This document shows, piece by piece, positions 15,661 to 62,495 of a stretch of 64,000 nt of DNA (positions are counted from its first letter, which is position 1; every line of letters starts with the position of its first letter). This stretch comes from Cladocopium goreaui (taxonomy: Eukaryota; Sar; Dinophyceae; Suessiales; Symbiodiniaceae). The position numbers and the translations under genes were made by a program. The notes beneath the pieces are model-generated. The model did not search any database. It saw only the letters and a list, made by a program, of their open reading frames with translations, and was not told where the DNA came from. The stretch covers positions 110,001 through 174,000 of the forward strand of contig CAMXCT020006645.1 of assembly GCA_947184155.2 (NCBI GenBank). Direction: 5' to 3'.

Positions 15661-15679
15661 TTCTTCCTGACGCCGGAGC

Positions 15680-25530: not shown

Positions 25531-25534
25531 AATT

Positions 25535-41116: not shown

Positions 41117-41433
41117 TTATTTTTCCAAACCCAAAAACCGTGGACATCCTCCAAAGCGCGCGTTAAAAACTACGCAACAGGAAAAACCAAACACCTCAAA
41201 ATACTGAGCTTACTCAAAGCAAAACCAACATATACACCATAGCGTATATGTGAAAGCATGGAATCTGAGAACGTCGTGCATGTGTTTCTCAAATAAAGTT
41301 GCGCATTCGTAAAAACCGTCTTCTCGCCAAATAAAACCAACTGCTCTGAAAATTCGAACACGACATCAATGCCGCATGCGGATCACTCCTTTTTACATCT
41401 TAGGTGATGGGGAATTCAAGCCGCCCGCTTTCG
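41117..41433 (-). repeat. Split direct repeat B2 (right end of element)
   Basis: This 317-bp segment matches 41941-42260 almost exactly, with small indels. It forms the terminal end of the element on the minus strand. Confidence 0.92.
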
Positions 41434-41568
41434 GGGGTATAAAGAAGAGAAGAACACGCATATTTACAGTGGCATTCCTCGCGTATTCTGTGAAACAGAG
41501 TAAACAACACGCTGTCGTGAAAATCATAGAGGTGCTCTCACCAAAGAAAAAATGCAGGGTGGGGGGGG
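41434..41568 (-). other. 135-bp unique spacer between A2 and B2
   Basis: This stretch has no duplicate elsewhere in the element and ends in a G-run at 41561-41570. In simple models A2 and B2 are contiguous, so the spacer is unexpected. Confidence 0.7.
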
Positions 41569-41940
41569 GGCACAAAAGAGAAACTCACCACTATAAAAAG
41601 TGGAACCCACCCTCCCTCCCTTTGGAGGCGCGTACTTGAAACATAAAATGTCACACGAATATAGAATTCAGTGGATAACTGTTAAACTTGTTTGAGATTT
41701 CCTGTATGCTAAGTGTGTGTCATCCTTGCGCAGATCTTGCAAAACTGAACTCTGAAAAACAAACATTGCTCACAATGTAAACTCAAATTTGCAGCACGGA
41801 AGAGTTGCCACAAACCCTGATGCACAGCGCAAGGACGCGGAGGACGCACGCAAACGCAAGAGGAGTCCTACTAGAAGCTGCTCTCAGCTTCTTTTTAGGG
41901 AGAGGAAAAATAAAGTTACATCAGCGCGCTGAGTCGCAAC
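41569..41940 (-). repeat. Split direct repeat A2
   Basis: A 372-bp segment near-identical to 49875-50246, with the same length. It abuts B1 at 41940/41941 without a gap. Confidence 0.95.
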
Positions 41941-42260
41941 TTATTTTTCCAAACCCAAAAACCGTGGACATCCTCCAAAGCGCGCGTTAAAAACTACGCA
42001 ACAGGAAAAACCAAACACCTCAAAACACTGAGCATTACTCAAAGCAAAACCAACATATACACCATAGCGTATATGTGAAAGCATGGAAACTGAGAACGTC
42101 GTGCATGTGTTTCTCAAATAAAGTTGCGCATTCGAAAAAACCGTCTTCTCGCCAAATAAAACCAACTGCTCTGAAAACATTCGAACATGACATCAATGCC
42201 GCATGCGGATCACTCCTTTTTACATCTTAGGTGATGGGGAATTCAAGCCGCCCGCTTTCG
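41941..42260 (-). repeat. Split direct repeat B1
   Basis: A 320-bp copy of the terminal B repeat. It overlaps the last 40 bases of the RT-RNase H ORF, so the C-terminus GGLNSPSPKM is encoded inside the repeat. Confidence 0.93.
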
Positions 42261-45200
42261 CCACGGACCCCACCCTTGTTGAATGTGGCGTCTTTGCCAT
42301 TTCGATGAAACTCATGCTTCCATTGAAAGCATCTCTCAATTCCCCTTCCGGGACTTCCAAGTCTCTTTTTAAAAGAGGGTGATCCATCAATCTCGAAGGA
42401 AAGTCTGCTATGTTTGACGCAGAAGGAACCCTGCTGAACCAAGGCAAAACACAGTAGGTGTCCAGGTAAGTTGCCGCAAGCGTACAAATAGCCGTTATCG
42501 AAGGTGAGCTGGAGTAGCCCTTGATCAAAGAAAATTTGGAGCCTTCATTGTCAATGTAAACCAGGAGAGGCCGCGACCTGAGCAGATCGCACCAAATCAA
42601 AAGCGCCATCGAAACAACCAGTGTCTCCAATTCGCCAATGGCGGTCTGTTGGCCACCTGAAAGAAAAATAGAAAGCTGTTGTATCTCTACCCAAAAACCA
42701 AACCAAGAAATCACTCGCCCATCGCCAGAAACCAGCACTGCACCAAGCCCAGACCCCTTGATCGGATCAAAGCTTGCGTCCGTAAACAAATACATGGGTT
42801 GCAGCAATTCACGATGGAGTCGCCTGGGTTCTCCTCGAAGGACCCTGGCTTCAAGTAACTTCAAAGAATCAATCATGCTATCCGAGAGGTCCGCGCAAAA
42901 AGGCGAAGCATACGCATGCCTGGTTATGTTCTGCAAGGCGATCTTTCCAAGCCTCCCAAAAATAAAGGAGTCACAAAAAGCCAAACGGCCTCTCAAGATC
43001 AGAGCACCCTTTTTGTCCAAAGCACCTGCCGATAAAACACCATTCAGCAGTTCGACTGTCTCCTTGATACGCTTCTCAGTATTGCACACACTAAGGATAC
43101 CGTCTGCACATCCTGAAAGATCAAACTGAACCCCAAGGGCCCTGACCAACTGTGAGAAATCGTCGCTCTTTGGACCCTCCCTGTCAAAGTTCCAACCAAG
43201 TATATCCAACATAAGACACAAGGCAGCTTGAGTGTTGTTGGCCAGGTTTGGAGCTGAGAAGGAAACAAAATCGTCAAAATAACATGATACAGGCAGCCTC
43301 AGGCATCTAGCTGAAACCCATTGAAGGAAACGTGCACACCTGATGAATGCATTGACCGCCGTTCGCGATCCGAAGGGCAAAGCTATTTGACGAAAAAGTT
43401 CCGCTTTCTTGCTTGCCGGTGAAAAAACCGAGAGAAAGGAATGCTTTGAGGAATCGTCTGAGATGGCCAGTTGCCTATATGCCGATGCTAGATCCAGAGA
43501 TCGCCCCATCAAACTTGTACTCTTTCCTGCAGCATGTAGACAACGCATGAAGAAAACACAAAAAGCACTAATGACATCCGGCACATCCACAGTGGCCTGC
43601 TCGAACGAAGTGACAGTGGCATTAACCTGACTTTGTGAAAGGTCATCAATGGGTCTCACCTTTCCCGCCTGATCCAATGGAAAACGTCTTGAAACCGTTG
43701 CATCGTCGGGCAGGCCATCCCAATCCAGTGGGCCTGACAGCCACCCTTTTTCAACTTCCTGTTGTGTCTTGTCCCACAGTTTTTGATCAAGCTCTTCAGA
43801 ACCGCTGCTCCTAGTCATGTACCGTAAGGCCACATTGGCTTTCTTAGCATTTCGAGCAAGATCAACTGTACTCATCGTGGCCGGCAGCAGTTTCTCAGGC
43901 AAGACATGAGAGCGTGGGACCTCCCCCACCAGTGAAAAACCATTTTCCAAATCGGAAGCCAGCTCCGCATCATCATACTTTTCTTCATTAATGATATGCC
44001 TCATCAAACAAAGTCTCTTGCTCTCCAGAATTCGCCTTCTGTCCATAGGCATGGCAGCTTTAATGGCCTCCTCCTCTTTTTGAAAGGATCGCGATAACCG
44101 CAACCACTCGCCAAGCTTGCTGCACCTATTGTTTATTGTGTCAACTTCGTCGCACTCAGCTACCTGTCTGCAAGCATCTCTGACTTCCGCCGGCAAACCT
44201 GAAAAAACTGTAAATGGATGTCCCACACTGACAGCTTGAGCGAGGAACTCTTCCGGTCCCCACCTGATACCAAAAACCCAGTCGCAACAATCACCAACTA
44301 TTTCATCCGATTCTAAATCAAAAGAAATGGGAGCACATTTCCCTTCCTGTTTACCACATTCCCTCAGGCGTGGCTCGCAGCCACCAACGGGAATCTGATT
44401 GGCATCTGCCAGTGATTGCAACGCATGTGTACGCTCAATAGACAGTTTGAAACGACGGCACTCACCCCCTTTTTTGCTGGTCGTTCTAAGCAGCTTGCTC
44501 TGACATGGAACCGTGCAGGACTGGGTGAGCCATGCGATTCTCGTACACTGTCGCAAAGTAGAATTGGCTAACTGAAATGAAAATTGACATGGTAAATTTG
44601 AAATCACAACAACATGAGAGAACTCAGGGACGGTGGATAATTGAAGCGCCTTGGAAGGTTGTTTTGCTGCAGCGATGGCATGAAAATGGGACAACTTGAG
44701 TTTCTTTGCATGTCTTGTAACATGAGGTAACTTATATTCACCTGCAATAGCTTCCAAAATTGCTGTAGCCAGTGCCCTGGCCAAACAAGGTGTGTATTCA
44801 GCTTCCAGAGAGGTATCAAAAACCCCGTTATTGATAGACCAAGGTGCATGCTCATGCTGCCCATCGCACAAAATGTTCAGTGACATCACTGCACTGCTGT
44901 TGGATGCCAGACATGTACGCTTCAATCTCTTTCCACCGAACATGCAATTATGCAACTCACAATAAAACGGATCTGTATTTTTCTCAACGTCCTTCCAATA
45001 TGATGTTTCCCAAAGCAAACTTGTAAATGGATTCTCCACCGTCCAAATAATATTGGCTGCATGCAACTGTTTTATCAGTCTTCGCATGTAGTTGTAAAGG
45101 CGATTGGCCGCCCTCAGTTTCACCGCATGCAGCCCAGTCAGGCCTGGTTTCCCATCTGGGAACCTTGGGGTACGTAAAGGTGGAGGTCCATGAATTTTTC

Positions 45201-45474
45201 GGCTAATGCGCCGAAATCTTGCGCGTGACGCCGTGCCGCAGGGAACTCCAAAATGGACCCAAAGGCACTTTCCAGACAAAGCCCACTGCTCCACCAAGGC
45301 CTGGTGGTCCTCCTTCGTCAAATCCAAACAGATAACTTTGACTTTCTGTTTGCTCACTTTGTGATCAACTCCAAAGCTATCTGGAAAAAAGTGTTTCATT
45401 GCATAGGTCAGGTTTCCTGTACCACAAAATAATTCCAAGCAGAAAAATCCGGGTTCTCCAAGCTGAGGTTTCAC
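42220..45474 (-). CDS. DIRS-like Pol: cytosine-methyltransferase-like domain, reverse transcriptase, RNase H
   Basis: This 1084-codon frame has no ATG near its start and is in the same frame as the upstream Gag-like ORF, separated from it by one TGA and 30 sense codons; it is probably made by readthrough. Residues about 10-240 resemble a C5-cytosine DNA methyltransferase: SAM-binding motif LELFCGTGN (about 13-21), the catalytic-loop Pro-Cys in FGVPCGTASRAR (about 75-86), and an ENP motif (VENPFTSLLW, about 143). RT follows, with DLASAYRQLAI and the catalytic box YFDDF (about 731). RNase H carries the acidic set TDASFD, GELET, YIDNEGS and NIADFPSR (about 895-1025). The frame is intact throughout. 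DIRS-group Pol proteins often carry a methyltransferase, but as I recall of the Dam (adenine) type and after RNase H, so both the type and the position here are notable. Confidence 0.9.
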   Translation of the reverse strand: MKPQLGEPGFFCLELFCGTGNLTYAMKHFFPDSFGVDHKVSKQKVKVICLDLTKEDHQALVEQWALSGKCLWVHFGVPCGTASRARFRRISRKIHGPPPLRTPRFPDGKPGLTGLHAVKLRAANRLYNYMRRLIKQLHAANIIWTVENPFTSLLWETSYWKDVEKNTDPFYCELHNCMFGGKRLKRTCLASNSSAVMSLNILCDGQHEHAPWSINNGVFDTSLEAEYTPCLARALATAILEAIAGEYKLPHVTRHAKKLKLSHFHAIAAAKQPSKALQLSTVPEFSHVVVISNLPCQFSFQLANSTLRQCTRIAWLTQSCTVPCQSKLLRTTSKKGGECRRFKLSIERTHALQSLADANQIPVGGCEPRLRECGKQEGKCAPISFDLESDEIVGDCCDWVFGIRWGPEEFLAQAVSVGHPFTVFSGLPAEVRDACRQVAECDEVDTINNRCSKLGEWLRLSRSFQKEEEAIKAAMPMDRRRILESKRLCLMRHIINEEKYDDAELASDLENGFSLVGEVPRSHVLPEKLLPATMSTVDLARNAKKANVALRYMTRSSGSEELDQKLWDKTQQEVEKGWLSGPLDWDGLPDDATVSRRFPLDQAGKVRPIDDLSQSQVNATVTSFEQATVDVPDVISAFCVFFMRCLHAAGKSTSLMGRSLDLASAYRQLAISDDSSKHSFLSVFSPASKKAELFRQIALPFGSRTAVNAFIRCARFLQWVSARCLRLPVSCYFDDFVSFSAPNLANNTQAALCLMLDILGWNFDREGPKSDDFSQLVRALGVQFDLSGCADGILSVCNTEKRIKETVELLNGVLSAGALDKKGALILRGRLAFCDSFIFGRLGKIALQNITRHAYASPFCADLSDSMIDSLKLLEARVLRGEPRRLHRELLQPMYLFTDASFDPIKGSGLGAVLVSGDGRVISWFGFWVEIQQLSIFLSGGQQTAIGELETLVVSMALLIWCDLLRSRPLLVYIDNEGSKFSLIKGYSSSPSITAICTLAATYLDTYCVLPWFSRVPSASNIADFPSRLMDHPLLKRDLEVPEGELRDAFNGSMSFIEMAKTPHSTRVGSVAKAGGLNSPSPKM

Positions 45475-45564
45475 ACCTGCCGTGCTGCTTTGGCGTTCAA
45501 ATGCCTGAGGTTGGAGCTTCCTTTTTCTGTCTTGCGATGCAGCTCCAATAGGAGTATCCTTTTG

Positions 45565-46797
45565 TCACTGATGCTCCGTCTGTGGGTGGCTCTTGTAACA
45601 GCCTGGCACAGCACAAACATGCTTGCGAGGACATGCTGCACCCTGCTTGCAAGAACCCAGATTGTAGCCAAAGCAAATTTGATCGCCCTGGGGCGTCCTC
45701 GAGTGCATACCTTTCAAGGACTGAGGAACAGGATCTCGCTTCTTGCCTTTGGATCCTTTATTGTTGCCCTTGGATGCACCTTTTTGGTACTTGTTCTGAC
45801 TGTACTGCCCTTTCGCACCTGCTGAAGGCTCCGGGCGCTTCTTGTCCTTGTCCACCTTGTCCGCGCCACCTGACCCTTGGCTATGGCCAGCCGGGATGGG
45901 AAGCATGAAGTATGTCACCGTCATGTCCGACTCCAATCGCTCGATGAGCGGGTCCAATGGCTTCCCAGCCCCCGCAAACGTCTTCAAAGACCCTGTGAAC
46001 TGCTCGCTGATGCGCACAAATGCCTGGCGATCTGCACGTAGCAATTGTGCCTGAGTCACTTTCTGGAAACCAGGCGCCGGTGCCTGAGCATACAAGGCAA
46101 ACAGTCTGTCCACCCACTTCCTCATAACTTCATAGGAAGCCAAGCCCGTCAGGTCCAGCGCCAAGGTGCGCCTTTGGAGCGCCTGGTAAAGCGCCAAGTC
46201 CGAGCTGATGCTGATCTCTGAATTGCTCGCCTGCTCCTTCACCACAAGCGACGTCTTTGTAGCGTCGAGCTGTATCTCTTTCTCAGGCTTGGATCCCATC
46301 AATTCCTGTTGTCTTGATAAGCATCTGTTCGGGTTGATGTAAGACACCTCATTGCGCTCAATCATTGCAGCGCAAAGATCGTATAGGGCATGGGCTGGTT
46401 CCAATGGCCCTTTGATATCCAAACCCCTCAGATGCTCCCTTTGCCTCTCCAATCTTGCGTCTCGCTCAGGCTGAGCCATACGCTTTGGAGTCACATCATC
46501 TCCTTTTGCCGTTGCTTTGAAGCTGTGCATCATCAAGGTCTGACTCTCAAATAAAAGCCGCTTGAAAGCTGAAAGTTCTGCTATGGTTGCTGGGCTATTC
46601 TCACGTAGCGTGCCCAGGAACCTTGTGACCTGCTCATCTGTAGCTGTAACACCTGGACTCGTAACCGCGAAGCTGAGCTTTGCAAACGTCGCCAATGAGT
46701 TGGCCTTGAGGGCTGTCAACCAAGGCTGTGTGAGCCCTGCATCTTCAGCCTGCTGTATGAAGGTGGCTTCAGAATCCAAAATGGATGAAGTAGCCAT
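45565..46797 (-). CDS. DIRS-like Gag-like protein with C-terminal zinc finger
   Basis: The ATG at 46797 gives MATSSILDSEATFIQQAEDA and a 410-residue protein. The body is helical and charged without a named domain. The tail is Lys/Gly/Ser-rich (GASKGNNKGSKGKKRD), then a CCCH-type finger (C-x7-C-x5-C-x3-H in CFGYNLGSCKQGAACPRKH) followed by a second Cys/His cluster (CAVPGCYKSH), suited to nucleic-acid binding. It ends HQ then TGA, and the same frame continues into the methyltransferase-RT-RNase H ORF. Function as the structural (Gag) protein is inferred from position and the zinc finger. Confidence 0.75.
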   Translation of the reverse strand: MATSSILDSEATFIQQAEDAGLTQPWLTALKANSLATFAKLSFAVTSPGVTATDEQVTRFLGTLRENSPATIAELSAFKRLLFESQTLMMHSFKATAKGDDVTPKRMAQPERDARLERQREHLRGLDIKGPLEPAHALYDLCAAMIERNEVSYINPNRCLSRQQELMGSKPEKEIQLDATKTSLVVKEQASNSEISISSDLALYQALQRRTLALDLTGLASYEVMRKWVDRLFALYAQAPAPGFQKVTQAQLLRADRQAFVRISEQFTGSLKTFAGAGKPLDPLIERLESDMTVTYFMLPIPAGHSQGSGGADKVDKDKKRPEPSAGAKGQYSQNKYQKGASKGNNKGSKGKKRDPVPQSLKGMHSRTPQGDQICFGYNLGSCKQGAACPRKHVCAVPGCYKSHPQTEHQ

Positions 46798-47434
46798 CGC
46801 ACAAAGACCCACGACCCGGTTTCGTAAACTTTAAATCAGATTGCAAAGCGAAAATTACCCAGTCAATCCAAATCGACACGATGCAGTGAAGCCCTCATAA
46901 AGCACACGTCTTCTATTCTGACAATTCTTGAAAGTTGTTTTTTTTGAAAACAAAAAGCATATTCATGAGTGTTTCCCTGCTCCACAAGGTGGTTGTCCAA
47001 ACATACCACTGAAAAAATGTGAGATCTCTCCGTGCTTGTGTTCTCCCCCCCCAGCTCAAACGCTGGGTCTGTCTTTAAGCCGGAAACATGCAGTTGCTCT
47101 CAACTCATGTCCGTGTGTTCATGCCTTGCTGCATGCAGCAAGGACACAACAATTTGACTGCTTTCAGTCAAGAGCCTTTGCTTGAATCTGATAAACTCAT
47201 TTCAATCCAGTGCATGCCCTAGACGCTTTCGTCAAAACATCCATGCAACTCACAAGCAAAAATGAAAACACAAGTGTGATCAATGCAGCTGAACCGTCAA
47301 ACGAATCGACAAAGGCAACTCAATCTCACTTTCTGAAAAAACTCACAATCTGAAGTTGCACAAGTCTGGAAATTGATCGACCACTGAGGTCAATGGCTGG
47401 CCTACGCTTTTTCCTTTCTCACGCATGAGCTCTC
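46798..47434 (-). other. 637-bp spacer between recombinase and Gag-like ORFs
   Basis: No convincing ORF. It may contain an internal promoter or a splice acceptor for the downstream Gag-Pol message; nothing specific is visible. Confidence 0.5.
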
Positions 47435-49648
47435 TCAAGCGTTTCTGCTCCTCTTGGCCTTCTGCTGGTCAAGGGCCTCAACTAGCCCCCCAACGCTGGT
47501 GATCACCTCACCACGAAAACATCTGCTGCACCTAGCATTCAAAGTTGAGCACCCTTGTTCCAACAACTCAAAGTTGGCAGCCACAACCAGCCTTCCACAA
47601 GCTGTCTGCTTGCTCACAGTTGAGCACTTGTGGACAACATGACTCCCTTTGTTGCGCCAAACCGGACCAGGGATGTCTACGTTTGAGACTGCCTGATCTT
47701 CCTCATCGCTGCTGTCACTGGAGCTGCCATCAGTTGAAGGAATGCTATCTGAATCTTCATCATCTCCATGCGTTGGAGCCGGTGACATGTGCTCTGTGTT
47801 CAGTGGTGTCGGTTGGTCATACCCGTCATCACTGCCTGCAATCTCAGCCGGCCCAAAGGCAGGTTGTGTCACTGCTGCAACCGGTTCACCTTGTGCATGG
47901 CCCTGCTTCTCCGCCAACTTCATGAGGTCCAACATCCTGCTAGTGCGGGACTCGTCAGGCCTGAAATGGTCTCTTCTGATGTTTGACAGCATGCTGCAGT
48001 ACAATTGTAATGGTCGGGTCAACATGTCCCGGGAATACACCATCATTGACTTTGCGCCTTGAAGCTCATGATGACCCAGTAGTGTACGAGAAGGTTCATC
48101 CAAGCCATAAGCACTGCACCAAACCAATGTTGTATGTTTGAAGCTGTGCGACGAAACTGAGCTCTCTGCATCCGTCTTGAGGAACCTGTTGACAAAGGCT
48201 CCAATTTCCTCTGACGTGCAACTTCTGGCACAGAGACTTCCATCATGTGCAGGTGCCCTGCAAATTGCTCCGAAAGGTTCTGAATCCAAAACAATACCCA
48301 GTTCCTGCATCGCCTGACACCAGTATTTTGACCAATCTGTGTTTGTCACACCAACCAGCGGTGCCACCAACGGCATGTACCTCTGCTTCTTAGCCAAGCT
48401 GGTTGCCGTCTTGTGGAACTTGGTTCTGGCTTCAACAAAGCCAAAAAGCTCACCATTGTATTCAGCCCTCTCTATCCAAAATTGATCAACGTACCTGAGG
48501 TCTGACCACCTGGATCTCGAGAGGACCGCAAAAATGACACCCCCCAGAAGATAGGCATCCCTGACATCCAGACCAGAGCTCATGGCCTTCTCCATAGAAG
48601 CCAATTCCGACGCCTTGAGAGGCCTGGCCGGGTGGTACATGTCTTTGGCAAGCATCAGTCTCTGCGCTCTGCCTCTCAACTGCGGGTCTGCCAACAAATC
48701 CTCTGGAATTGGCAATTGCATGACATACTTTCCAAATCTCAGCGCCTCCAACAGTGTAATGCCCTTTGATGCAGGCCCAGCATGACTACTCACTTGTCCC
48801 AAGTACTGCAAACACATAGATCTGTTCCATGGGTCCCAGTCTGTAAATGTCGATTGCAACCAGCAAAAATAACGCCTCAATGTTTGCGCACGCTTGATGG
48901 CCGTCCTGGGTGACTTGACCCCCAGGGCATCTCGAAGCACCTCGCTCTGTGTAGAGCTTGATCCATCCACCTGCTCGGACAGAAGCGCATGTCCTAACAT
49001 GCCAGGAAAACCCAAAATCTCAAAGACCTGGATCCATTTCTGAATTGCCTTCTCCCACAACAGTGCATCTTCTGCAAACATGTCTCTGTCAGGTACAACT
49101 CGAATTGCAAAAGAATAAAATGGTAAGGCCATGTCTGACTGTACCAGGCTCTTGGCTGAAGGCATCTCTGTTGCGGCCTGTTCCGCCATGTCAGCACTTG
49201 TCGCAGAAACTGGCAATAAACATGCAGGTGGCAAAGGAGGCACAACCCTAGGAAAAATTGATTCATCGTCACTGTCAAAAATCTGTTTCATTATTCCAGA
49301 TTCCCATGGCATCTTCAACTCAACATCGCCCATTGCCGCCATACGTGCATCAAACAAGGCCCTATTGTAGTCTGACCGTGAAACTGCAACGTCTGAGCTT
49401 CGTGCATCTGCATCACCCTGAACCAACCGTGAAGCATCGCAACCCTCCATGTCCACGACACCAGGTTCACTCAAAAAGCCAGCTGGAAAACTTTGTTCCG
49501 GGGCATCGGTTGCAGAAATTGGCATTGAATACACTCCGTTTTGCATGTCAAATGAAATGTCTCCATCCAGGGCCCCGGCAGTCGGCTCCGAAATCAGTGA
49601 CATGAAGCTGTCTTGCTCAGGTGTCTCGCACTGACTGTCTGTATTCAT
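47435..49648 (-). CDS. DIRS-like tyrosine recombinase
   Basis: The open frame extends to 49762 but the first ATG is at 49648 (MNTDSQCETPEQDSF), giving 737 residues. After an acidic, Met/Ser-rich N-terminal region of about 200 residues, a core-binding-like helical region leads to the catalytic domain. Box I Arg lies in AVLSRSRWSDLRY (about 378). Box II reads SHSFKHTTL (about 501), with Lys where His-x-x-Arg is usual. A conserved LLGHH follows (about 525), and the nucleophile Tyr is in MMVYSRD (about 536). A C-terminal Cys-rich tail (HKCSTVSKQTACGR ... CSRCF) may bind metal. This enzyme would integrate the circular DNA intermediate. It is the first ORF of the element rather than the last. Confidence 0.85.
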   Translation of the reverse strand: MNTDSQCETPEQDSFMSLISEPTAGALDGDISFDMQNGVYSMPISATDAPEQSFPAGFLSEPGVVDMEGCDASRLVQGDADARSSDVAVSRSDYNRALFDARMAAMGDVELKMPWESGIMKQIFDSDDESIFPRVVPPLPPACLLPVSATSADMAEQAATEMPSAKSLVQSDMALPFYSFAIRVVPDRDMFAEDALLWEKAIQKWIQVFEILGFPGMLGHALLSEQVDGSSSTQSEVLRDALGVKSPRTAIKRAQTLRRYFCWLQSTFTDWDPWNRSMCLQYLGQVSSHAGPASKGITLLEALRFGKYVMQLPIPEDLLADPQLRGRAQRLMLAKDMYHPARPLKASELASMEKAMSSGLDVRDAYLLGGVIFAVLSRSRWSDLRYVDQFWIERAEYNGELFGFVEARTKFHKTATSLAKKQRYMPLVAPLVGVTNTDWSKYWCQAMQELGIVLDSEPFGAICRAPAHDGSLCARSCTSEEIGAFVNRFLKTDAESSVSSHSFKHTTLVWCSAYGLDEPSRTLLGHHELQGAKSMMVYSRDMLTRPLQLYCSMLSNIRRDHFRPDESRTSRMLDLMKLAEKQGHAQGEPVAAVTQPAFGPAEIAGSDDGYDQPTPLNTEHMSPAPTHGDDEDSDSIPSTDGSSSDSSDEEDQAVSNVDIPGPVWRNKGSHVVHKCSTVSKQTACGRLVVAANFELLEQGCSTLNARCSRCFRGEVITSVGGLVEALDQQKAKRSRNA

Positions 49649-49874
49649 CCAGTCTGTCCCTAATGTCACCGCTGTCCATGTAAATTCCGTAACAAGTCCC
49701 ACAGAGCAACTGCAAATCACCCAGATCCAAAAAAGCAAAACAACGCACTTCAACGTATGCAACCCTTGAAGAATGGTCCCAAATAGACCAGGTCGACAAC
49801 CAAAACTGATGGATACTAAGGTAATCGTACCTCTCAGGATCCCACTGCAACCTGAACATCAATACCCCATGGCT
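49649..49874 (-). other. Leader between A1 and the recombinase ORF
   Basis: This is 5' untranslated sequence of the element. The frame is open without an ATG for the last 114 bases before the start codon. Confidence 0.5.
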
Positions 49875-50246
49875 GGCACAAAAGAGAAACTCACCACTAT
49901 AAAAAGTGGAACCCACCCTCCCTCCCTTTGGAGGCGCGTACTTGAAACATAAAATGCCACAAGAATATAGAATTCAGTGGATAACTGTTAAACTTGTTTG
50001 AGATTTCCTGTATGCTAAGTATGTGTCATCCTTGCGCAGATCTTGCAAAACTGAACTCTGAAAAACAAACATTGCTCACAATGTAAACTCAAATTTGCAG
50101 CACAGAAGAGTTGCCACAAACCCTGATGCACAGCGCAAGGACGCGGAGGACGCACGCAAACGCAAGAGGAGTCCTACTAGAAGCTGCTCTCAGCTTCTTT
50201 TTAGGGAGAGGAAAAATAAAGTTACATCAGCGCGCTGAGTCGCAAC
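49875..50246 (-). repeat. Split direct repeat A1 (left end of element)
   Basis: A 372-bp terminal repeat, near-identical to 41569-41940. On the minus strand it begins GTTGCGACTCAGCGCGCTGA. It should contain the element promoter. Confidence 0.95.
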
Positions 50247-50381
50247 GTAAAACAATGTGTAGCTAACGGCCTGCGGCCGCAACTGTAAAGCAATTTCTCA
50301 AACGTGCACTGTCATAGGGCGCCAAGCTGAAAAATATCTGAACTGTTCAGGTGCTTCCCGAGTGTCTTCGTCTTACCTGCA

Positions 50382-51710: not shown

Positions 51711-52155
51711 GCTCCTCATGTCACACCCTCGTTTGTGTTTGCGCACATCCTTGGGTGATCGTGTGGTATCTCGGGGTTCTCCCGGACCGATCGGTACACA
51801 CGGGGTACGGGACCGACGGGTCTCACCTTACCTTGTGTCTAGGGTAGCAACACCCAATGATGACACGGGAGAACAGGCAAGGTCGGTGAACCTCTTAGAG
51901 ACTTGGGGCCTTGTCTCGAGGAGGGGTCAACGGGGCAACCCGTTGGCTAACGGTCAATATTCACCGTTGGGTAGCTAAGCTCGCGGTGGACAAGACCGTC
52001 GGTTCCTCCCTAACAGTGTTAGGGGCCTGTTGCAAGACAGGTGTATCCCCTGAAATACATGGGATCGCTAACGACTGGGTCACCGACCGGTTCACTCTCA
52101 TCCTTCGGGGAGAGTGCGCTCAATGTACAGTCTGGCTACAGTAAGGACCTTGTTT
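51711..52155. repeat. About 440-bp GC-rich direct repeat, copy 1
   Basis: It starts GCTCCTCATGTCACACCCTC and ends near GTAAGGACCTTGTTT. It is rich in potential hairpins, for example CCTAACAGTGTTAGG, CCTGTTGCAAGACAGG and a stem capped by CCTTCGGG at about 52093-52116. It is repeated at 52523-52960. No protein domain was recognised in any frame. Confidence 0.9.
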
Positions 52156-52522
52156 TTGGCTCTAACGTCCGAGCTGTGCTCCATAGGGACTGGGGTCACT
52201 GAAAAGGTGACTAAGACTTTCTACTCCTTGCTTGGATCGTCTTCTCCAGTATCTGCTGGAGTCAGGGAACCTATGGGGGCATCATGCGTTGGCTTTACTT
52301 GGGTATGGTGGTGATCATCTTGTGTGGTGACTTTTGGTTTCTGTGTTCCACGTTCCTTGAGGAGTGATCATCTTGGGTGAAATGAATGGTCTCCGTGTCT
52401 GCACGGTTTCCACGCCACTCGGTGAGTCGATCTCCTCGGGAAATGAATGGTCACAGTCTCCTTGTCACCCGGTGAGTGGATCCATTGCCGCGCCAGGATG
52501 CGCCTGGTGCTTGCCGGGGGCC

Positions 52523-52960
52523 GCTCCTCATGTCACACCCTCGTTTGTGTTTGCGCACATCCTTGGGTGATCGTATGGTATCTCGGGGTTCTCCCGGACC
52601 GATCGGTACACACGTGGTACGGGACCGACGGGTCTCACCTTACCTTGTGTCTAGGGTAGCAACACCCAATGATGACACGGGGGAACAGGCAAGGTCGGTG
52701 AACCTCTTAGAGACTTGGGGACTTGTCTCGAGGAGGGGTCAACGGGGCAACCCGTTGGCTAACGGTCAATATTCACCGTTGGGTACTTCATTAAGCTCGC
52801 GGCGGACAAGACCGTCGGTTCCTCTCTAACAGTGTTAGAGGCCTGTCGCAAGACAGGTGTACCCCCCTGGGATACATGGGATCGCTCACGACTGGGTCAC
52901 CGACCGGTTCACTCGAGAGTGGGCTCAATGTACAGTCTGGCCACAGTAAGGACCTTGTTT
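52523..52960. repeat. About 440-bp GC-rich direct repeat, copy 2
   Basis: A near copy of 51711-52155 with few substitutions and indels. The hairpin at 52093-52116 is shortened here to CACTCGAGAGTG, which can still pair. Both copies lie in what may be an intron of a plus-strand gene ending at the CAG near 52978. Confidence 0.9.
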
Positions 52961-53062
52961 CTCTCAGTCTCCTTCCAGGTGACGTTACCATACGAGTGCT
53001 CCCAGGAGACAAAATTTACCAGGCTATGGAAATTGAGCCTGAGTTTATGCAACCAGCTATCT

Positions 53063-53885
53063 TGCGGAAGGCGCCCAGCCTTCGAAACCTACTTGGGTCA
53101 GCGTCCAGGACGTCGTCCTTAACTCACTAAGACCGTCCACGCAACCAAGTCAACCACTCCCAGAGCTCAGCCACTTTTACCAAACACACAAGCACAGAAA
53201 TGTCTGCTCATGTCGCTATGGTTCTTGTTGGTGTGTCACGCCTTGACACAAAAATGATGCGGAGTCGCCAGTCAGCATCTTTCTGCTAACTTTCACAAAA
53301 GCGATCAAAAACACATGTCCTCACAAAAAGTCTTTACATCAAGACATGGTTTGTTTGTTTAAATAAGTTTGAGTGTTTGAAAAACGTTGAAACATTTCAA
53401 GCACCAAAACATGTTCATGATGTCTCCCTCAGATCTGTTAGCAACTCCAGTTCTGAATGCCTTTCAGAACGTTGCTCTCGCTATCATCATTGAGAGACAA
53501 AACAACCTAAACTTCTCCGATCAATGTCAAACAAAGTTCCTTCTTCCGAAGTCACAAAATGAATTCTACGATCTTCTCACGATTCCTTCGTGCACTTCGT
53601 CGACGACAACTAATGCAAAAGGTATGGAAAATAGTTTGATTTTCCATGTCACTATACAAATTCAAATCCTCACGATGTTCTCCGTGCAATCAAAGTACTC
53701 AAAGAAGACGAAAAGTATATCGTTGTTGGGTTTCGTCATCTCCAATAAACGTGCAAAACATGGAACGTGCAAATACGATGTCAACCATCACGGTTGAGCT
53801 CATCATCAAGATGAAAACCAAATTCACTTCTTCCAATGCAGAAAAGACCAATGGATTCATCTCACGGATGTCGGAAATTTTCACA
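53063..53885 (-). repeat. Copia 3' LTR
   Basis: An 823-bp direct repeat of 62514-63344, bounded TG...CA on the minus strand and directly preceded by the polypurine tract. Confidence 0.93.
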
Positions 53886-53896
53886 CCCCCTTTTGA
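53886..53896 (-). promoter_or_regulatory. Polypurine tract for plus-strand priming
   Basis: On the minus strand AAAAGGGGG abuts the TGTG start of the 3' LTR, the usual position and composition of a polypurine tract. Confidence 0.8.
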
Positions 53897-54061
53897 GATG
53901 AACTCCATTCCATAGGTACAAGCTATAACCCATCCAGACTTCAGCACATATCGCTCAAACTCGACAGGTCAATACATATAGTACGAATTGTCCCGTTGTC
54001 CACCATCCAATGAACAACCAGCTCATAGTCTTTCCTCGCCTTTGCACCAATGAAGATACTC

Positions 54062-54643
54062 TCAATCACCCAGCTGCCTCTGCACTGAAGTTCCAGTGAA
54101 GCAACCCTTTGGCTTTCCAACCTTTCCAGAGTCCTCCACAACCTTGCATGCGCAGAGAAAAGAATACCAATCCTTTGCAATTGGACTCGTACTCTTGTTT
54201 CCCAGGTGACACATACTCCATTTGCAATATCCTGCCATCTCATCATCGACATATACCTCACGGTATGTTTTGCCTTCATTGGCAAACTTTCCAAACGCAA
54301 ACTTCGTTCTGCTCCAATCTCGAAAACTCATACCTTCAGGCACCAAATCAGCAGTAAGCTGATCAAGGACCTTGTCGGCAATCCCAGGAAAGATTGGGAT
54401 AGGCATCACAGGCAACTGCGCACTCAAAGGTTCAGCTGCCGAAGAAATCACATCGAATTCATCATCATCCAGAGCCTCACGAAGTCGCTTGCTTCCATCT
54501 GTCATTGCTCCTGGACTCTCCAAAGGAGTCAAAATACTGGATCCGGCTGTATAGCCTGACCCTGAATTCTCACTGTGCCACTTCTTCTGAAGAAGACCAA
54601 GCAAAGCCTTCTCATCTTCATCTGTCCATCCAGACTTGGCCAT
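54062..54643 (-). CDS. Copia accessory ORF, Myb-like N-terminus
   Basis: A 193-residue protein starts at a true ATG (54643), downstream of Pol. Its N-terminus SGWTDEDEKALLGLLQKKWH resembles the first helix of Myb/SANT domains (Trp, acidic cluster, Leu-Leu). The C-terminal half has KFAFGKFANEGKTYREVYVD and GYCKWSM, a pattern (F-G-K ... G-K-T-Y ... Y-x-x-W) that I recall from small dinoflagellate and phage-type proteins but cannot name. A stop at 54062 ends it; a different frame stays open to 53941. It may be a regulatory or DNA-binding protein of the element. Function is unknown. Confidence 0.6.
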   Translation of the reverse strand: MAKSGWTDEDEKALLGLLQKKWHSENSGSGYTAGSSILTPLESPGAMTDGSKRLREALDDDEFDVISSAAEPLSAQLPVMPIPIFPGIADKVLDQLTADLVPEGMSFRDWSRTKFAFGKFANEGKTYREVYVDDEMAGYCKWSMCHLGNKSTSPIAKDWYSFLCACKVVEDSGKVGKPKGCFTGTSVQRQLGD

Positions 54644-54982
54644 GGCTACGAACCAAACCGCGTCCGGTAGTGAAAAAGTACTAGACCGTGGCTAAACTCT
54701 TAGGAGCAATTAACCTAGAACGTGAAACGAAGTGTCGAACCGCCATCACAGTCGTGATAGGATCAGTGACCTTTCAGATTGTTCTGCACTGCGCACACCG
54801 CGTCTTACAGCATCGCGCAACAAAACTCTGCACAAGATGGAACATAGTGAAAACTCCTGTTTGTCTTTGGCAACGTTTGTTTAAAACAACGTGCAAACAG
54901 AAATGAAACGAAATGAAACATGACGTCAACTTCTGTCTCTCTCTCACAATCACAGTCACAGGGCCCCCTTTCAAACGCAAAT

Positions 54983-57900
54983 TCAACTCTTCTTCGAAGC
55001 ATGTTTGACCGCAATCAAAATGTATCTTGCCAACTTGCGGTTGTAAAACGCTGTTTCAGTATAGTTGATTTGATAAAGTTCTGCATGAGTCTGGCATGTA
55101 CATGTAGAAAGTTTGGAGTGAAGATTCAGTGCAAACCAGGCTGAATTGGAAACAAACTTCAATGTCTTTCCAATCGGAATACCATCCTTGTTCTGACATC
55201 CAGTCTTGCACAACCTCACCAAAGCCTCATGCCTCATGTCAAAACTCTGCAAAAGATTCACTGTCTCAGGTCGGGACCAAATGGTATTTCGTTCTGGAAG
55301 CTCAAACGAACATGAGTCTGCATGTTTGAAGTAACCACCAATCGCGTTGATGATCTCATCCCATTCCTGGTCCTTTTCAGTGACCGAGTCCGGATTGAAA
55401 TTGCGAAGTGGACTTCCACTTCCACAAGGAGTCGATGCATGAATATGCACCCAAGGTGGACATGACGAATTCTTCCACTGTCGAATGCAAACAGCTACAC
55501 GACTCAACGTTCCAGAACTCTGCACCTTAGCAACTACACCAATGTATGGGACCTTCGAAACTTCACAGACCTTTCTCAAGTTCGAATGTTCCGAACAACA
55601 CAGTTCCACAATCGCAATGGAAGAACCCTGAGTCAACACTTGTTGCAACACACTCAGCTCACGAAGCTCTGCCAACTCAGCTGTCAAACCATCTGGTACA
55701 ACAATCCCAAGAGCATATCGGTGTTTATAGAAAGCTTTAGCACTCAAGCATTTAGTGAAAAGATCTGCTGGATTTTCAACACCACTCCTGTGTCTCAATT
55801 TCAACAAACCCTCTCTCATCTGCTCTCGTAACCAATGCAATCTTATTTCAATGTGTCGTGAACGTCGTGGCACGTCCATGGATCTCACAAGTTGCAATGC
55901 GGAGCTTGAATCGCTCTCCAACCAAATCACAACTTCTTCTGGCTCATCGATCTCATGAAGTGCAAACAGAAGACGGTGAACCAGTCTTCCAAACGCAACA
56001 CTTTCTTGACACACTGATTGCAAACCATAGAGTTCTGCCTCACATGAACTCAAGCTCAAAGCTTGTTGTTGTCGGCTCAGAGACCTTACCAATGACCTCT
56101 CAAAGAAAACAGCTCCACCGCTAACACCTTTGCGGTTGTTGAAACGATAAGGCGCATGTGAAGCGTCGCTGAAAGAGTGAAGATGGACTGATCTCAGTTG
56201 AGTATCGTCAACCTGACTCATGATGGTCTCATCTCTGCTCGGTAGACACAAGCATGCATGCATGTCAACATACAAGAATCTCAAAACTGCTTTCAATGCT
56301 TGTTCAGTTCCGTGCATCGGTTTCGCTTGCTGTGTTCCAAGAACAGACATCCATGTCTTCAAGTCATGGCACACCTGTGACAACCAAAGCAATTTTCCCA
56401 ACGCCTTTCTGAAGCGTGAGTATGCTTCATCTGACAAAGGTTTCTGAAAGTTGCTATCCGTGAGTGTTTTCTCCAGATGTCCCGAAATGTCAGGAACATT
56501 CTCAGACCCACGAGTAACACCATAATCCAGAAACGTAGAGTCAAGATAATGTGGATCGACACCCAGAGTGATCTCAGAGGAATCTCTTTCTCTTTTGATG
56601 ACACGACCAATAAAGGTCAGGGATCCTCCCTCTTCTCCGATCTCTCCAGTTGTCTTCACAGGCACTACAGACGACAAAGTTGCAACCACATGTTCTTCGG
56701 CTTCCTTAGTGGTCGACAACAACAGAATGTCATCAACGTACACCACACACAAGCAAAATCCAATTTCATGACCATCTTTCACAATCTGTCCACCATACAC
56801 ACATGGTTCCAACGAATCAGACCAAAGGCCTACATGTTCAACCGTAAATGTCAAAAGCTGCAACCATGCCAGTGAAGCATCACGTAACCCGTTCAATGCC
56901 TTTTCAAGCAAATAGTAGGTCGCTTCACCTGATGGAAAGCTAATCGACAACGGCATTTTCAAGACAACATGTACGCCAGTTCCCAATGGGCTATGCATGA
57001 AGGCATGACTCACGTCCAATGCACGCAAAAGCATCTTCCGTGTCGCTGCCATTGCAAGCACCAAATGAACACTCTCAATCGAAGGGGTAGGACTACTAAA
57101 TCCCAAAGATCTAGCTGAGGAGCCACGATTGAAGTCCTTCGCAACAATCCTGGTTCGAACCCTCTCACTGCTTTTGTAAGCTGCAACCCACCTCGACTGG
57201 ATCAAACGAAGGTTCGGAACAGCCTTCTTCATGTCGTCCAGTTCTGACTGGGTGATGATGCGGCCAGTCTTGCAGTGTTCCAAGTTCCTAACCTCCTCTT
57301 GCATACCTTTGAAACCTTGTTCCAAATCAAGCTCTTGCAAACTCTGATCATCTATGATACTGTCCGGTTTCCAAACCAAGACATCTTGACCTCCAAGACG
57401 AATCTTCACAAAATCATGCTCATTGCCTCGATTGAAACAAACAGAATCAAGAGAACCAGAAAACATTTCAGGAGATGTTGCCGGAGCAAAAGACGCTGGA
57501 CCCTCAAGTGTACCCAAACTCGCAACCAACACAGGCTCACCACTACCAACCCAAAACCAATCAAAATCCATGTTTGTTTGAAGCAGTTCCTCAGAATCTT
57601 CACGGATCTCTCTTTCCAACTGTTCTCGGTCGGTCTCAGCTTTCCTTTTAAACCTTCTAGTGTACTCAACCTGTGTTTCCGGCTGTCGCCGAGCGGACTC
57701 AGGTGTTGGTACCAATTCTTCATCATCGACCTCTTCTACTGGCACCTGAACCTGGGGTACGACAACAGGGCTCTCCTGAGAGAGTGCCGGTTCAACACGT
57801 CTTTCCTTTCTCCGTTGTTCCTCAAACTCAGCAAAACGCTTTCTACATTCCTTGTTGTGCCTAATACCAGGTGCTTCCATGCCACTCTCACATGCTGGAC

Positions 57901-59275
57901 ATCGACGAGTCGGTTCAAAACGTGATACGTCAGGTGAAGTTCTTTCAGAACTCTCAGGACTACCAATAGCTACATCTGCAGCATCTGCTGGTGACGTAGG
58001 AGATGGAGTGACAGAAACTCGAGACGGCTCTGCTGGAACTTCCTGTGGAGTCACGACAACGTTCGATCTTGCCAATGGCACTGCTGGCGCCAAACGCAAC
58101 TCACCAGATTTCTTCCTCACACTGCTGGACTCTGGCAAGACAAGTTTGGGCTGTGAAGGTGCCGGCAAACTCTGGCCTTTCAACTTTCGCAACTCTTCAG
58201 GAGGTAGCTGACTCATATCAGCTGGTGCAGTTCCACTGTCATTCACAATTTGGGGTCTACTACCTACAGTCCCAGTATCAAACTGTGTCAAAACACCCTG
58301 TCCCGAATTCAAATCCCATCTCAAAGGTGAAATAGCCCTGATGTTCCTAGCTACAAAACGCATCAACTCAGCTTTGCCATCCACACGAATGAGACCCTGC
58401 ACAACTGGACCTCGTTCCAATCCCATGTGAATGAAAGTACACTCAACATTCCTCGTTGAAAGTGGTGAATGCTGTCGAATTGAATCAGGAATCTCTGCCA
58501 AAACCTGAGCACCAAACAAAGTCGAAACTGGTTTGGATAACTTCCTTCCTGAAACCATTTCCAATGGACTTCTGTCTGAACCTCTCGATGTTGAAAAATG
58601 GTTGTTGCACAAAGCCAAATACGTCAAAACATCATCCAAAATCTCATGTGAAAACGTGACATCCAACCCTTGTGCATTAAGATCAGCCCTTAACACAGAA
58701 AAGGATTCCTTTAATTCCCTAACTGCTCGCTCAGCCGACCCAATCGATCGATGTTGTTGTGGTGCGGCTCTCCGAATAGCGAACGTGCATCGGCCAGTAG
58801 AGGATCCAATGATCTCTCCCACTGCCCTCTCGCTATCGGTGTGGACATCAATGGAGACTGCCTTCGAAGTCAACCCAAAATGTTGAAGCCATACAACAAT
58901 CTGTCTCCTGGCTGCTTCGACATCTTCTCCAACCACCACATAGCCAATGCACCTCGACATCATCTCGGTTAACACAAGGATCTTCACCGAACCTGGGAGT
59001 TCGTCTGTGGCGATCTCGCCTGATGTCTTGAGGAATGCAAAATCGGCCTGAATAGAAACCTCCTTCCTGTCACCTTTGTCTCTTCTGTGCTGAAAAACAG
59101 AACGACCTTTGGCACATTCCAAGCAGTTCGGATTGAATGGAATATGTCCCTGTCTCCGGTGACGTGCCAGTTCACTGTCGTCTCCTCCAGACACAGCTGC
59201 GACAGAAAAGTCATGAGTGTTACTCACAGTCAAGTCAGACCTGTATGCACTACTACTACCAACATCTGGATACAA
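54983..59275 (-). CDS. Copia Pol: integrase, reverse transcriptase, RNase H, methyltransferase-like C-terminus
   Basis: A 1430-codon frame in the same frame as Gag and protease, entered after a TAG and without its own ATG. Integrase has a zinc region (H39, H44, C51, C54) and catalytic D78, D147 and E182 (D-x34-E). RT carries LDVSHAFMHSPLG and YVDDILLL (about 843). RNase H has SFSDASH (about 1034), SSCEAELYGL, WLESDSS and NPADLFTKCL. After RNase H come about 230 extra residues with IAIVELCCSEHSNL (about 1222), HASTPCGSGSPL (about 1280) and FELPERNTIWSRPE (about 1322). These look like the SAM-binding, Pro-Cys and Glu motifs of a cytosine-methyltransferase-like fold, though degenerate. The main catalytic residues of IN, RT and RH all appear present. 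Confidence 0.9.
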   Translation of the reverse strand: MYPDVGSSSAYRSDLTVSNTHDFSVAAVSGGDDSELARHRRQGHIPFNPNCLECAKGRSVFQHRRDKGDRKEVSIQADFAFLKTSGEIATDELPGSVKILVLTEMMSRCIGYVVVGEDVEAARRQIVVWLQHFGLTSKAVSIDVHTDSERAVGEIIGSSTGRCTFAIRRAAPQQHRSIGSAERAVRELKESFSVLRADLNAQGLDVTFSHEILDDVLTYLALCNNHFSTSRGSDRSPLEMVSGRKLSKPVSTLFGAQVLAEIPDSIRQHSPLSTRNVECTFIHMGLERGPVVQGLIRVDGKAELMRFVARNIRAISPLRWDLNSGQGVLTQFDTGTVGSRPQIVNDSGTAPADMSQLPPEELRKLKGQSLPAPSQPKLVLPESSSVRKKSGELRLAPAVPLARSNVVVTPQEVPAEPSRVSVTPSPTSPADAADVAIGSPESSERTSPDVSRFEPTRRCPACESGMEAPGIRHNKECRKRFAEFEEQRRKERRVEPALSQESPVVVPQVQVPVEEVDDEELVPTPESARRQPETQVEYTRRFKRKAETDREQLEREIREDSEELLQTNMDFDWFWVGSGEPVLVASLGTLEGPASFAPATSPEMFSGSLDSVCFNRGNEHDFVKIRLGGQDVLVWKPDSIIDDQSLQELDLEQGFKGMQEEVRNLEHCKTGRIITQSELDDMKKAVPNLRLIQSRWVAAYKSSERVRTRIVAKDFNRGSSARSLGFSSPTPSIESVHLVLAMAATRKMLLRALDVSHAFMHSPLGTGVHVVLKMPLSISFPSGEATYYLLEKALNGLRDASLAWLQLLTFTVEHVGLWSDSLEPCVYGGQIVKDGHEIGFCLCVVYVDDILLLSTTKEAEEHVVATLSSVVPVKTTGEIGEEGGSLTFIGRVIKRERDSSEITLGVDPHYLDSTFLDYGVTRGSENVPDISGHLEKTLTDSNFQKPLSDEAYSRFRKALGKLLWLSQVCHDLKTWMSVLGTQQAKPMHGTEQALKAVLRFLYVDMHACLCLPSRDETIMSQVDDTQLRSVHLHSFSDASHAPYRFNNRKGVSGGAVFFERSLVRSLSRQQQALSLSSCEAELYGLQSVCQESVAFGRLVHRLLFALHEIDEPEEVVIWLESDSSSALQLVRSMDVPRRSRHIEIRLHWLREQMREGLLKLRHRSGVENPADLFTKCLSAKAFYKHRYALGIVVPDGLTAELAELRELSVLQQVLTQGSSIAIVELCCSEHSNLRKVCEVSKVPYIGVVAKVQSSGTLSRVAVCIRQWKNSSCPPWVHIHASTPCGSGSPLRNFNPDSVTEKDQEWDEIINAIGGYFKHADSCSFELPERNTIWSRPETVNLLQSFDMRHEALVRLCKTGCQNKDGIPIGKTLKFVSNSAWFALNLHSKLSTCTCQTHAELYQINYTETAFYNRKLARYILIAVKHASKKS

Positions 59276-59281
59276 ACGAAC

Positions 59282-59707
59282 CTAAGGACAATTGGCAAAA
59301 TAAGCAACATCAAGACAATGCATTCCAAGCTTCTCATGGAACAAATCAAAACCTTTTGGACCTTGTGTGAATCTCCATCCCGAATCTGCCAATGAAGTAA
59401 TTGACAAAATGTTGTGCCGGATGGAACCCACCAAAACATTCAAACGTGCTTTCTTCCAACACCAATCATCACCTGATGTGCCTGACATGTGCATCTGTAC
59501 TCCAATCTCAGCAGTGCCTGACATGTTGACTGAGGATCCATTGGCAGCTTTGTAGCCACCTAACCCCTCACTGTCCTGTAGCACTGACCTGAAGGCTGAC
59601 AAGTTCGACTCAGCCAAAACACTTGTGGATGCACCAGAGTCAAGAAGCCACCAAGAAGCATCGGTGTTGTCAGCGACCTGTGAAAGCAAAGGTCGCAAAA
59701 ACTTCAA
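59282..59707 (-). CDS. Copia aspartic protease segment
   Basis: The frame reads WWLLDSGASTSVLAESNLSA, the D-S-G-A active site of retroviral-type proteases, and continues to ANCP before a TAG at 59284-59282. It has no ATG and lies four codons after the Gag stop in the same frame, so it must be expressed by readthrough from Gag (or after correction of the stop). The expected flap and ILG-like hydrophobic segment are present in outline (HNILSITSLADSGW). Confidence 0.85.
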   Translation of the reverse strand: MKFLRPLLSQVADNTDASWWLLDSGASTSVLAESNLSAFRSVLQDSEGLGGYKAANGSSVNMSGTAEIGVQMHMSGTSGDDWCWKKARLNVLVGSIRHNILSITSLADSGWRFTQGPKGFDLFHEKLGMHCLDVAYFANCP

Positions 59708-59719
59708 GTAAGGTTCAAT

Positions 59720-62425: not shown

Positions 62426-62495
62426 ACCAGGACTAGGACAACCTTGCACACCTTGACTCGCACTCCTGAATCCATTCCTACTTACGCACAGCAAG

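What the first reader, a model, noticed from the sequence alone, without database searches (positions are those of the whole stretch)
41117..50246. Complete split-direct-repeat tyrosine-recombinase retroelement with recombinase first
All four repeat copies (A1 372 bp, B1 320 bp, A2 372 bp, B2 317 bp) are present in A1-[ORFs]-B1A2B2 order, and the B1/A2 junction equals the predicted circle junction. All three ORFs look intact. The order tyrosine recombinase, Gag-like, MTase-RT-RH differs from the Gag-RT-recombinase order usually described for DIRS and Ngaro elements. This could be a distinct dinoflagellate lineage.
Basis: partly seen in the sequence, partly recalled or inferred. Interest (0 to 1): 0.88.

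Follow-up and report, generated by a model that had tools for sequence, protein, structure and literature searches.

The report
Dinoflagellate-type recombinase retrotransposon, order circularly shifted
This is a complete copy of a copy-and-paste mobile element, of a kind known from single-celled algae, that probably inserts as a DNA circle; its genes stand in an order that is the usual one read from a different starting point on that circle, and it carries an unusual methyltransferase-like domain.

Summary
B1 and A2 abut, there is no target-site duplication, and the B/A joint holds the element's strongest inverted repeat. ORF 1 has the Cre fold; Pol has a retroviral/Ty3-type RT. It is a split-direct-repeat YR retrotransposon (DIRS order), probably recently active. 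Recombinase-first order is real here; a second copy (P0002) shows the A repeat before YR. It is not unprecedented: de Mendoza et al. [quoted passage not shown] YR-Gag-Pol is a cyclic permutation of Gag-Pol-YR. What looks new: a methyltransferase-like domain that does not align with a Dnmt-type one and HxxK in the recombinase (88 of 88 ungapped rows). Own-genome copy counts were not obtained: that search did not complete.

The parts
49875..50246 (-). A1, 372-bp left terminal repeat
   Evidence: 98.7% identical to A2 over 375 columns; beyond it the sequence no longer matches the element
47435..49762 (-). ORF 1: tyrosine recombinase (775 aa; 737 from ATG at 49648)
46813..47434 (-). YR-Gag spacer, 622 bp, no A or B repeat in it
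   Evidence: part of it is collinear in relative P0002
45565..46812 (-). ORF 2: Gag-like protein (415 aa; 410 from ATG at 46797) with a Cys/His-rich C-terminus
   Evidence: no Pfam match at E 1; fused upstream of Pol in 10 relatives' protein models
42220..45474 (-). ORF 3: methyltransferase-like - reverse transcriptase - RNase H (1084 aa)
41941..42260 (-). B1, 320-bp internal repeat; overlaps the 3' end of ORF 3
   Evidence: 97.8% identical to B2; alignment
41569..41940 (-). A2, 372-bp internal repeat, abutting B1
41904..41950 (-). Circle-joint inverted repeat across B1/A2 (arms GGAAAAATAAGTTGC / GTAACTTTATTTTTCC, centre CAGCGCGCTG)
   Evidence: Best inverted repeat of the element: score 13.5, next best place 10.5 among 452 windows; 0 of 300 letter shuffles reach it, largest 12.0
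41434..41568 (-). x, 135-bp unique spacer between A2 and B2, C-runs at both edges
   Evidence: apart from itself the best match in the window is 12 bp, E 0.39
41117..41433 (-). B2, 317-bp right terminal repeat
   Evidence: element ends AAATAA, then unrelated flank

Best explanation
A complete, probably recently active split-direct-repeat retrotransposon of the DIRS order (tyrosine-recombinase retrotransposons) in a dinoflagellate-type nuclear genome. Inferred cycle: an RNA that starts inside A1 and ends inside B2 is copied by Pol; the missing ends are restored from the internal B1A2 copy; a double-stranded circle forms whose B/A joint carries an inverted repeat; the recombinase (Cre fold) recombines that joint with the chromosome and leaves no target-site duplication. 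The recombinase-first order is the usual Gag-Pol-YR order of the circle, cut at another point: here the B/A joints lie between Pol and YR instead of between YR and Gag. Shown: anatomy, folds, joint, inverted repeat, absence of duplication. Inferred: RNA ends, circle, integration, activity.
For: Repeats and exact B1|A2 joint. YR fold = Cre; in 92 rows the expected catalytic residues are mostly kept (R418 in 86, K459 in 92, H539 in 83, H565 in 87, Y576 in 82). RT-RNase H fold. The strongest inverted repeat of the element lies across the circle joint; its first 32 of 47 bases occur once in the window at up to 3 mismatches. No target-site duplication. The first 142 bp of A1 and the last 85 bp of B2 are identical to A2 and B1, while all differences lie further in: what templating of the ends from B1A2 predicts, though weak (chance 0.15 and 0.16, limits chosen after looking). 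Relative P0002 (85% identical YR) aligns in one piece through A repeat, leader, YR and YR-Gag spacer. Five of 87 Pol relatives (P0091-P0177) keep the AKAGG tail that here is coded across the start of B1. Gag precedes Pol in all 10 proteins that hold both (8 of 177, 2 of 39). That the circular intermediate exists is shown in print for DIRS-1 (PMC5633606, passages).
Against: P0051 is a protein model with Pol followed by YR, and P0178 one with Gag-Pol-YR-Gag-Pol: either tandem copies or relatives with the classical order, so YR-first may not be fixed in the wider family. A2 and B2 are separated by x, unlike the plain A1-[ORFs]-B1A2B2 scheme. Box II of the recombinase is HxxK, so activity is not certain. 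The element boundary lies 14 bp off the centre of the inverted repeat, so the exact crossover point is not explained. No other full DNA copy was seen; P0002 is a translated model, and only its A-YR side is seen.
Confidence: 0.85

Rival explanations
1. The order is an accident of this locus: a classical Gag-Pol-YR element in tandem or nested copies lost its outer parts, so that YR-Gag-Pol was left between repeats.
For: P0178 (Gag-Pol-YR-Gag-Pol) and P0051 (Pol then YR) show that runs of these genes in cyclic order exist in related genomes.
Against: Both outer ends are clean and precise, the YR-Gag spacer holds no A or B sequence, no other piece of the element lies in the 64 kb by blastn, tblastn or profile search, and P0002 is a second copy with the A repeat directly before YR.
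Confidence: 0.07
2. It is simply a SymbioDIRS-Dnmt3 element as described in 2018, with a Dnmt domain too diverged for Pfam.
For: Same repeat scheme, methyltransferase plus RT in one ORF, separate recombinase, shuffled order reported. RT-RNase H of P0177, which has canonical cytosine-methyltransferase motifs (recalled) and a sub-threshold PF00145 match (E 0.0062), is homologous to ours (probability 99.8). One of 29 aligned relatives matches PF00145 at E 0.043.
Against: The methyltransferase part does not align with that of P0177 (probability 0.0) but does with P0174 (99.7) (both as single sequences, so sensitivity is limited). No PF00145 match in the window protein at E 1, nor for the domain alone at E 10. 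That P0177 is a SymbioDIRS-Dnmt3 protein is my inference.
Confidence: 0.2
3. An old, dead copy kept by chance.
For: A1/A2 and B1/B2 differ by about 1-2%; HxxK in the recombinase; the first in-frame ATG of Pol lies inside the methyltransferase-like domain; the 98% identical relative P0091 breaks off at our Pol residue 864, so at least that copy looks damaged.
Against: Three long open ORFs; K at the HxxK position in 88 of 88 ungapped rows means a family trait, not decay; relatives nearly identical to this element exist (P0001 98.5%, P0091 98.3%), both with longest contig 8477.
Confidence: 0.1

Closest known systems
SymbioDIRS-Dnmt3 (de Mendoza et al. 2018, PMC5890265)
   Same: Symbiodinium host; A-coding region-B-A-B repeats; methyltransferase in the Pol ORF with RT; separate recombinase ORF; two structures with different domain order in Pol and shuffled integrase/Pol order.
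   Different: Their methyltransferase is Dnmt3 (PF00145) and their recombinase is labelled PF00589; neither model matches the window's proteins. Their figure with the exact order is not held.
PAT / TOC / Kangaroo elements
   Same: Split direct repeats and a putative methyltransferase domain (PMC4157794, passages).
   Different: The MT of DIRS-type elements is described as Dam-like (PMC3783388, passages) and, in DIRS1, follows RT-RH (PMC3266345, passages); Kangaroo has an inverted YR; nematode Pat1 and Kangaroo carry the internal repeats between MT and YR.
Ngaro
   Same: A1-[ORFs]-B1A2B2 repeats with YR (PMC8547959, passages).
   Different: No methyltransferase; internal repeats downstream of YR.
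VIPER / TATE of kinetoplastids
   Same: VIPER shows A1 ... B1, A2, B2 repeats (PMC6681497, passages).
   Different: Other hosts; no putative MT; the ORF order Gag, YR, RT/RH is recalled only and would not be a cyclic permutation of this one.
DIRS-1
   Same: Circular cDNA, shown for DIRS-1; integration by YR is the published proposal; an internal region restores the ends (PMC5633606, passages).
   Different: Inverted terminal repeats plus internal complementary region; ORFs Gag, RT-RH-MT, YR with overlap.

Membership tests
DIRS order (tyrosine-recombinase retrotransposons) | Tyrosine recombinase in place of a DDE integrase | tested here: met
   Cre-fold YR. A DDE integrase was not searched for by itself; Pfam scans of the three ORFs gave none.
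DIRS order (tyrosine-recombinase retrotransposons) | RT and RNase H | tested here: met
DIRS order (tyrosine-recombinase retrotransposons) | Split direct (or inverted) repeats with an internal copy of the circle joint | tested here: met
DIRS order (tyrosine-recombinase retrotransposons) | No target-site duplication (recalled) | tested here: met
   No shared 1-15 bp across the ends; empty site not available
DIRS order (tyrosine-recombinase retrotransposons) | Canonical recombinase box II H-x-x-R (recalled) | tested here: not met
   H-x-x-K; K in 88 of 88 ungapped of 92 rows. It is a usual trait of the enzyme rather than one that defines the order, so I keep the filing at order level on fold and repeats, and claim no membership in a named family below it.
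PAT group | Dam-like methyltransferase, placed after RT-RH (placement taken from DIRS1) | tested here: not met
   Domain lies before RT; no PF05869 match
Kangaroo | YR on the opposite strand | tested here: not met
   All three ORFs on the minus strand
Ngaro | No methyltransferase; internal repeats downstream of YR | tested here: not met
   Methyltransferase-like domain in Pol; YR is first, internal repeats follow Pol
SymbioDIRS-Dnmt3 | A-coding-B-A-B repeats and methyltransferase plus RT in one ORF | tested here: met
   description. Methyltransferase-like here, activity untested.
SymbioDIRS-Dnmt3 | Methyltransferase is Dnmt3 (PF00145) | tested here: not met
   1 of 29 aligned members at E 0.043
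SymbioDIRS-Dnmt3 | Integrase/Pol order of one of its two structures | not testable with these tools
   Drawn in a figure that is not held; the text says only 'shuffled'
C5 cytosine methyltransferase (residues 1-260 of ORF 3) | Catalytic Pro-Cys and Glu-Asn motifs (recalled) and fold | tested here: inconclusive
   Cys79 and Glu147 in at least 90%, Asn148 invariant in 29 rows; a PCGTAS-like motif in 54 of the 84 MT-RT proteins; no fold match seen because RT fills the hit lists

The most novel reading that the evidence does not exclude
The gene order arose by a shift of the integration joint on the circle. In nematode Pat1 and Kangaroo the internal joint copy lies between MT and YR while the joined ends lie elsewhere on the circle; if the joint between YR and Gag was lost and the one between Pol and YR was kept and doubled, exactly YR-Gag-Pol results, with x as the remnant between the two joint copies, while the opposite choice gives Ngaro order. 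The lineage also carries a methyltransferase-like domain that does not align with the Dnmt-type one of P0177, and this domain family moves between element classes: before RT in 84 proteins (the window's included), after RT-RH in 3, and perhaps at the end of the neighbouring Ty1/copia element (weak).
Probability: 0.3. Interest if true: 0.6.

Novelty: new variant of a known kind. Interest (0 to 1): 0.42.

Why it matters
If the order is a cyclic permutation, YR retroelements may keep one order on the circle and differ only in where the joint sits, a simple rule that would explain orders now listed as separate types and that can be tested on any genome. A mobile methyltransferase-like domain that current Pfam models do not catch would mean that methyltransferase-bearing retroelements in dinoflagellates are undercounted. 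The HxxK recombinase with its circle-joint inverted repeat is a compact system in which to test recombinase chemistry and site choice.

Tried and rejected
Searches for other DNA copies: viral contigs with the YR, the Pol alignment, the YR alignment and the 22-bp joint and genome contigs with both alignments gave none; these collections hold viral contigs and bacterial and archaeal genomes, so this says nothing about dinoflagellates. The own-genome search with a 384-bp query (41117-41500: B2 and part of x) was sent 19 times and never answered.

Rejected: that the order is unprecedented; that the methyltransferase-like domain is a plain, recognisable Dnmt3; that x derives from another part of the window. 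Left open: that the inverted repeat is the crossover site itself, since the element boundary lies 14 bp from its centre. A spliced-leader relic as a host marker was sought and not found, and Rfam gave no match in the window, so the host rests on relatives only. PDB sequence searches gave nothing for YR at E 1 or for the Pol profile at E 0.1. PHROGs gave only matches with E 0.13 to 0.22. In the fold lists the methyltransferase-like part was barely tested; absence of a match there means nothing. No tree was built: no DIRS, PAT, Ngaro, Kangaroo or VIPER references were fetched.

Counts and what was left out: alignments A1 and A2 hold 28 of the 88 Pol hits and 32 of the 90 YR hits, each plus the window protein. 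Searches scored only the about 8,000 candidates that share most words, so their hit numbers are lower bounds. In one search, 129 of 217 proteins (216 relatives and the window's Pol) were classed by domain order: 84 MT-RT, 27 RT only, 15 MT only, 3 RT-MT; the other 88 are recombinase hits.
Full report
Check of the observation. Repeat finding and blastn of the region against the whole window give two repeat pairs and no further copy: 49875-50249 with 41569-41943 (98.7%) and 41941-42260 with 41117-41433 (97.8%). Read on the minus strand this is A1 (50246..49875, 372 bp), three ORFs, B1 (42260..41941, 320 bp), A2 (41940..41569, 372 bp), a 135-bp unique spacer x (41568..41434) and B2 (41433..41117, 317 bp). 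B1 and A2 abut without a base between. The flanks are ...TTGTTTTAC and TGTCTTTGC..., with no duplication of 1-15 bp.

Repeat differences. A1 and A2 differ at A positions 143, 226, 285 and 290 only; B1 and B2 differ at six places, all before the last 85 bp. So the outer 142 bp of A1 and the outer 85 bp of B2 are identical to their internal copies. This is what end restoration from the internal joint predicts, but with so few differences chance gives it with 0.15 and 0.16, and the limits were chosen after seeing the data.

Circle joint. Across B1|A2 runs GGAAAAATAA|GTTGCGACTCAGCGCGCTGATGTAACTTTATTTTTCC, an inverted repeat with a score of 13.5; the next best place among 452 windows of the element has 10.5, and none of 300 letter shuffles of the 100-bp joint reaches 13.5 (largest 12.0). 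At the A1 end the left arm is replaced by flank, so the repeat is whole only at the joint (its first 32 bases occur once in the window). The element boundary lies 14 bp from its centre, so it is probably the recombinase-binding region, while the exact crossover point stays open.

Pol. The 1084-aa ORF has a sub-threshold RVT_1 match; 27 of 29 aligned members match RVT_1 at E 0.1 or better. Its model (pLDDT 83.8) matches RTs of CaMV, MMLV and Ty3 by Foldseek and of HIV-1 and Ty3 by VIA. In front of RT lies a domain of about 260 residues with LELFCGTGNLT, VPCGTASRAR and VENP motifs; Cys79 and Glu147 are kept in at least 90% and Asn148 in all 29 rows. By these motifs (recalled) it looks like a methyltransferase of the C5 type, but Pfam finds nothing for it alone, and the fold search was filled by RT, so fold and chemistry are unproven.

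Which methyltransferase. P0177 has a canonical motif set (PCQ, ENV) and a sub-threshold PF00145 match (E 0.0062). Its RT-RNase H aligns with ours (probability 99.8); its N-terminal domain does not (0.0), whereas that of P0174 does (99.7) (single sequences on that side). The same domain lies after RT-RH in P0204, P0205 and P0211. So proteins with related RT-RNase H carry methyltransferase parts that do not align, and the same methyltransferase-like family stands on either side of RT. That P0177 belongs to a YR element is not shown. This is the least expected part of the result.

Order in other copies. P0002, a protein model from another contig with 85% identical YR, aligns in one tblastn piece to window 50155..47045, that is through the A repeat, the leader, YR and into the YR-Gag spacer, 74.8% identical over its residues 1-1033. 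So A before YR is found in two copies. At the other end, 5 of 87 Pol relatives (P0092, P0093, P0102, P0119, P0144) keep the AKAGG tail that is coded across the start of B1. Gag stands before Pol in all ten proteins that hold both. Against a fixed order: P0051 has Pol then YR, and P0178 has Gag-Pol-YR-Gag-Pol; protein models lack the repeats, so tandem copies and classical order cannot be told apart. P0090 has YR then the methyltransferase-like domain. Five YR/Pol pairs share the same longest-contig length (8477, 361203, 368848, 394397, 304070), which suggests, but does not show, that they lie together.

Interpretation. On a circle Gag-Pol-YR and YR-Gag-Pol are the same order; they differ in where the B/A joints sit. 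PMC4157794 (passages) states that in nematode Pat1 and in Kangaroo the internal repeats lie between MT and YR, that is, those elements have one joint copy in the interval in which ours has both of its copies. A shift of the joint could then give either order. This is an inference and untested.

Comparison with print. Papers were seen as listings and passages, and section 7 of PMC5890265 in full. That paper reports SymbioDIRS-Dnmt3 with A-coding-B-A-B repeats and shuffled integrase/Pol order, and DIRS elements without DNMT in the same genomes. Searches for the name SymbioDIRS (one paper), for dinoflagellate plus DIRS plus tyrosine recombinase plus retrotransposon (three), for Symbiodiniaceae plus DIRS plus retrotransposon (four, three listed), and for six joint terms since 2018 (two) showed no later description of this element in their listings, within the open-licence library only. 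The joint-shift idea did not appear in the passages read; no search was made for it by name.

Verdict. A real, complete YR retrotransposon of a known kind with a partly known order and two features that look new: a methyltransferase-like domain that does not align with the Dnmt-type one, and HxxK in the recombinase. New variant of a known kind; interest 0.42.

Noticed in passing
window 53056-63344 (minus-strand ORFs 54983-59275 and 59720-62494): A Ty1/copia-type LTR element: direct repeats at 53056-53885 and 62507-63344 (97.3% identical over 840 columns), RVT_2 E 1.3e-18 and a CCHC zinc knuckle (E 8.8e-05).
   Followed up: partly
window 54986-55735, C-terminus of the copia Pol, minus strand: The last 250 residues of the copia Pol resemble part of the methyltransferase-like domain of the YR element (hhalign probability 50.8, score 35.5; 22.1 when the whole ORF is used; the best of 30 letter shuffles by probability has 1.1, score 19.9; hmmsearch gives only 2.5 bits). 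Weak, but it hints that one domain family may sit in two element classes in one window.
   Followed up: partly
window 47435-49762, residue 542 of the recombinase: Box II is H-x-x-K in all 88 ungapped rows of 92.
   Followed up: partly
relatives P0171, P0180, P0183-P0185 and others: A number of distant Pol relatives carry DUF4326 (PF14216).
   Followed up: no
window 51711-52960: Direct repeat of about 450 bp in two copies about 812 bp apart, 92.7% identical.
   Followed up: no
window 1-1001, 6379-6935, 15651-17300, 17991-18687, 24102-25881: Arrays of tandem repeats by window self-comparison (no tandem-repeat program was run); a 377-aa repetitive ORF lies over most of the one at 15651-17300 (15626-16759, minus strand).
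   Followed up: no
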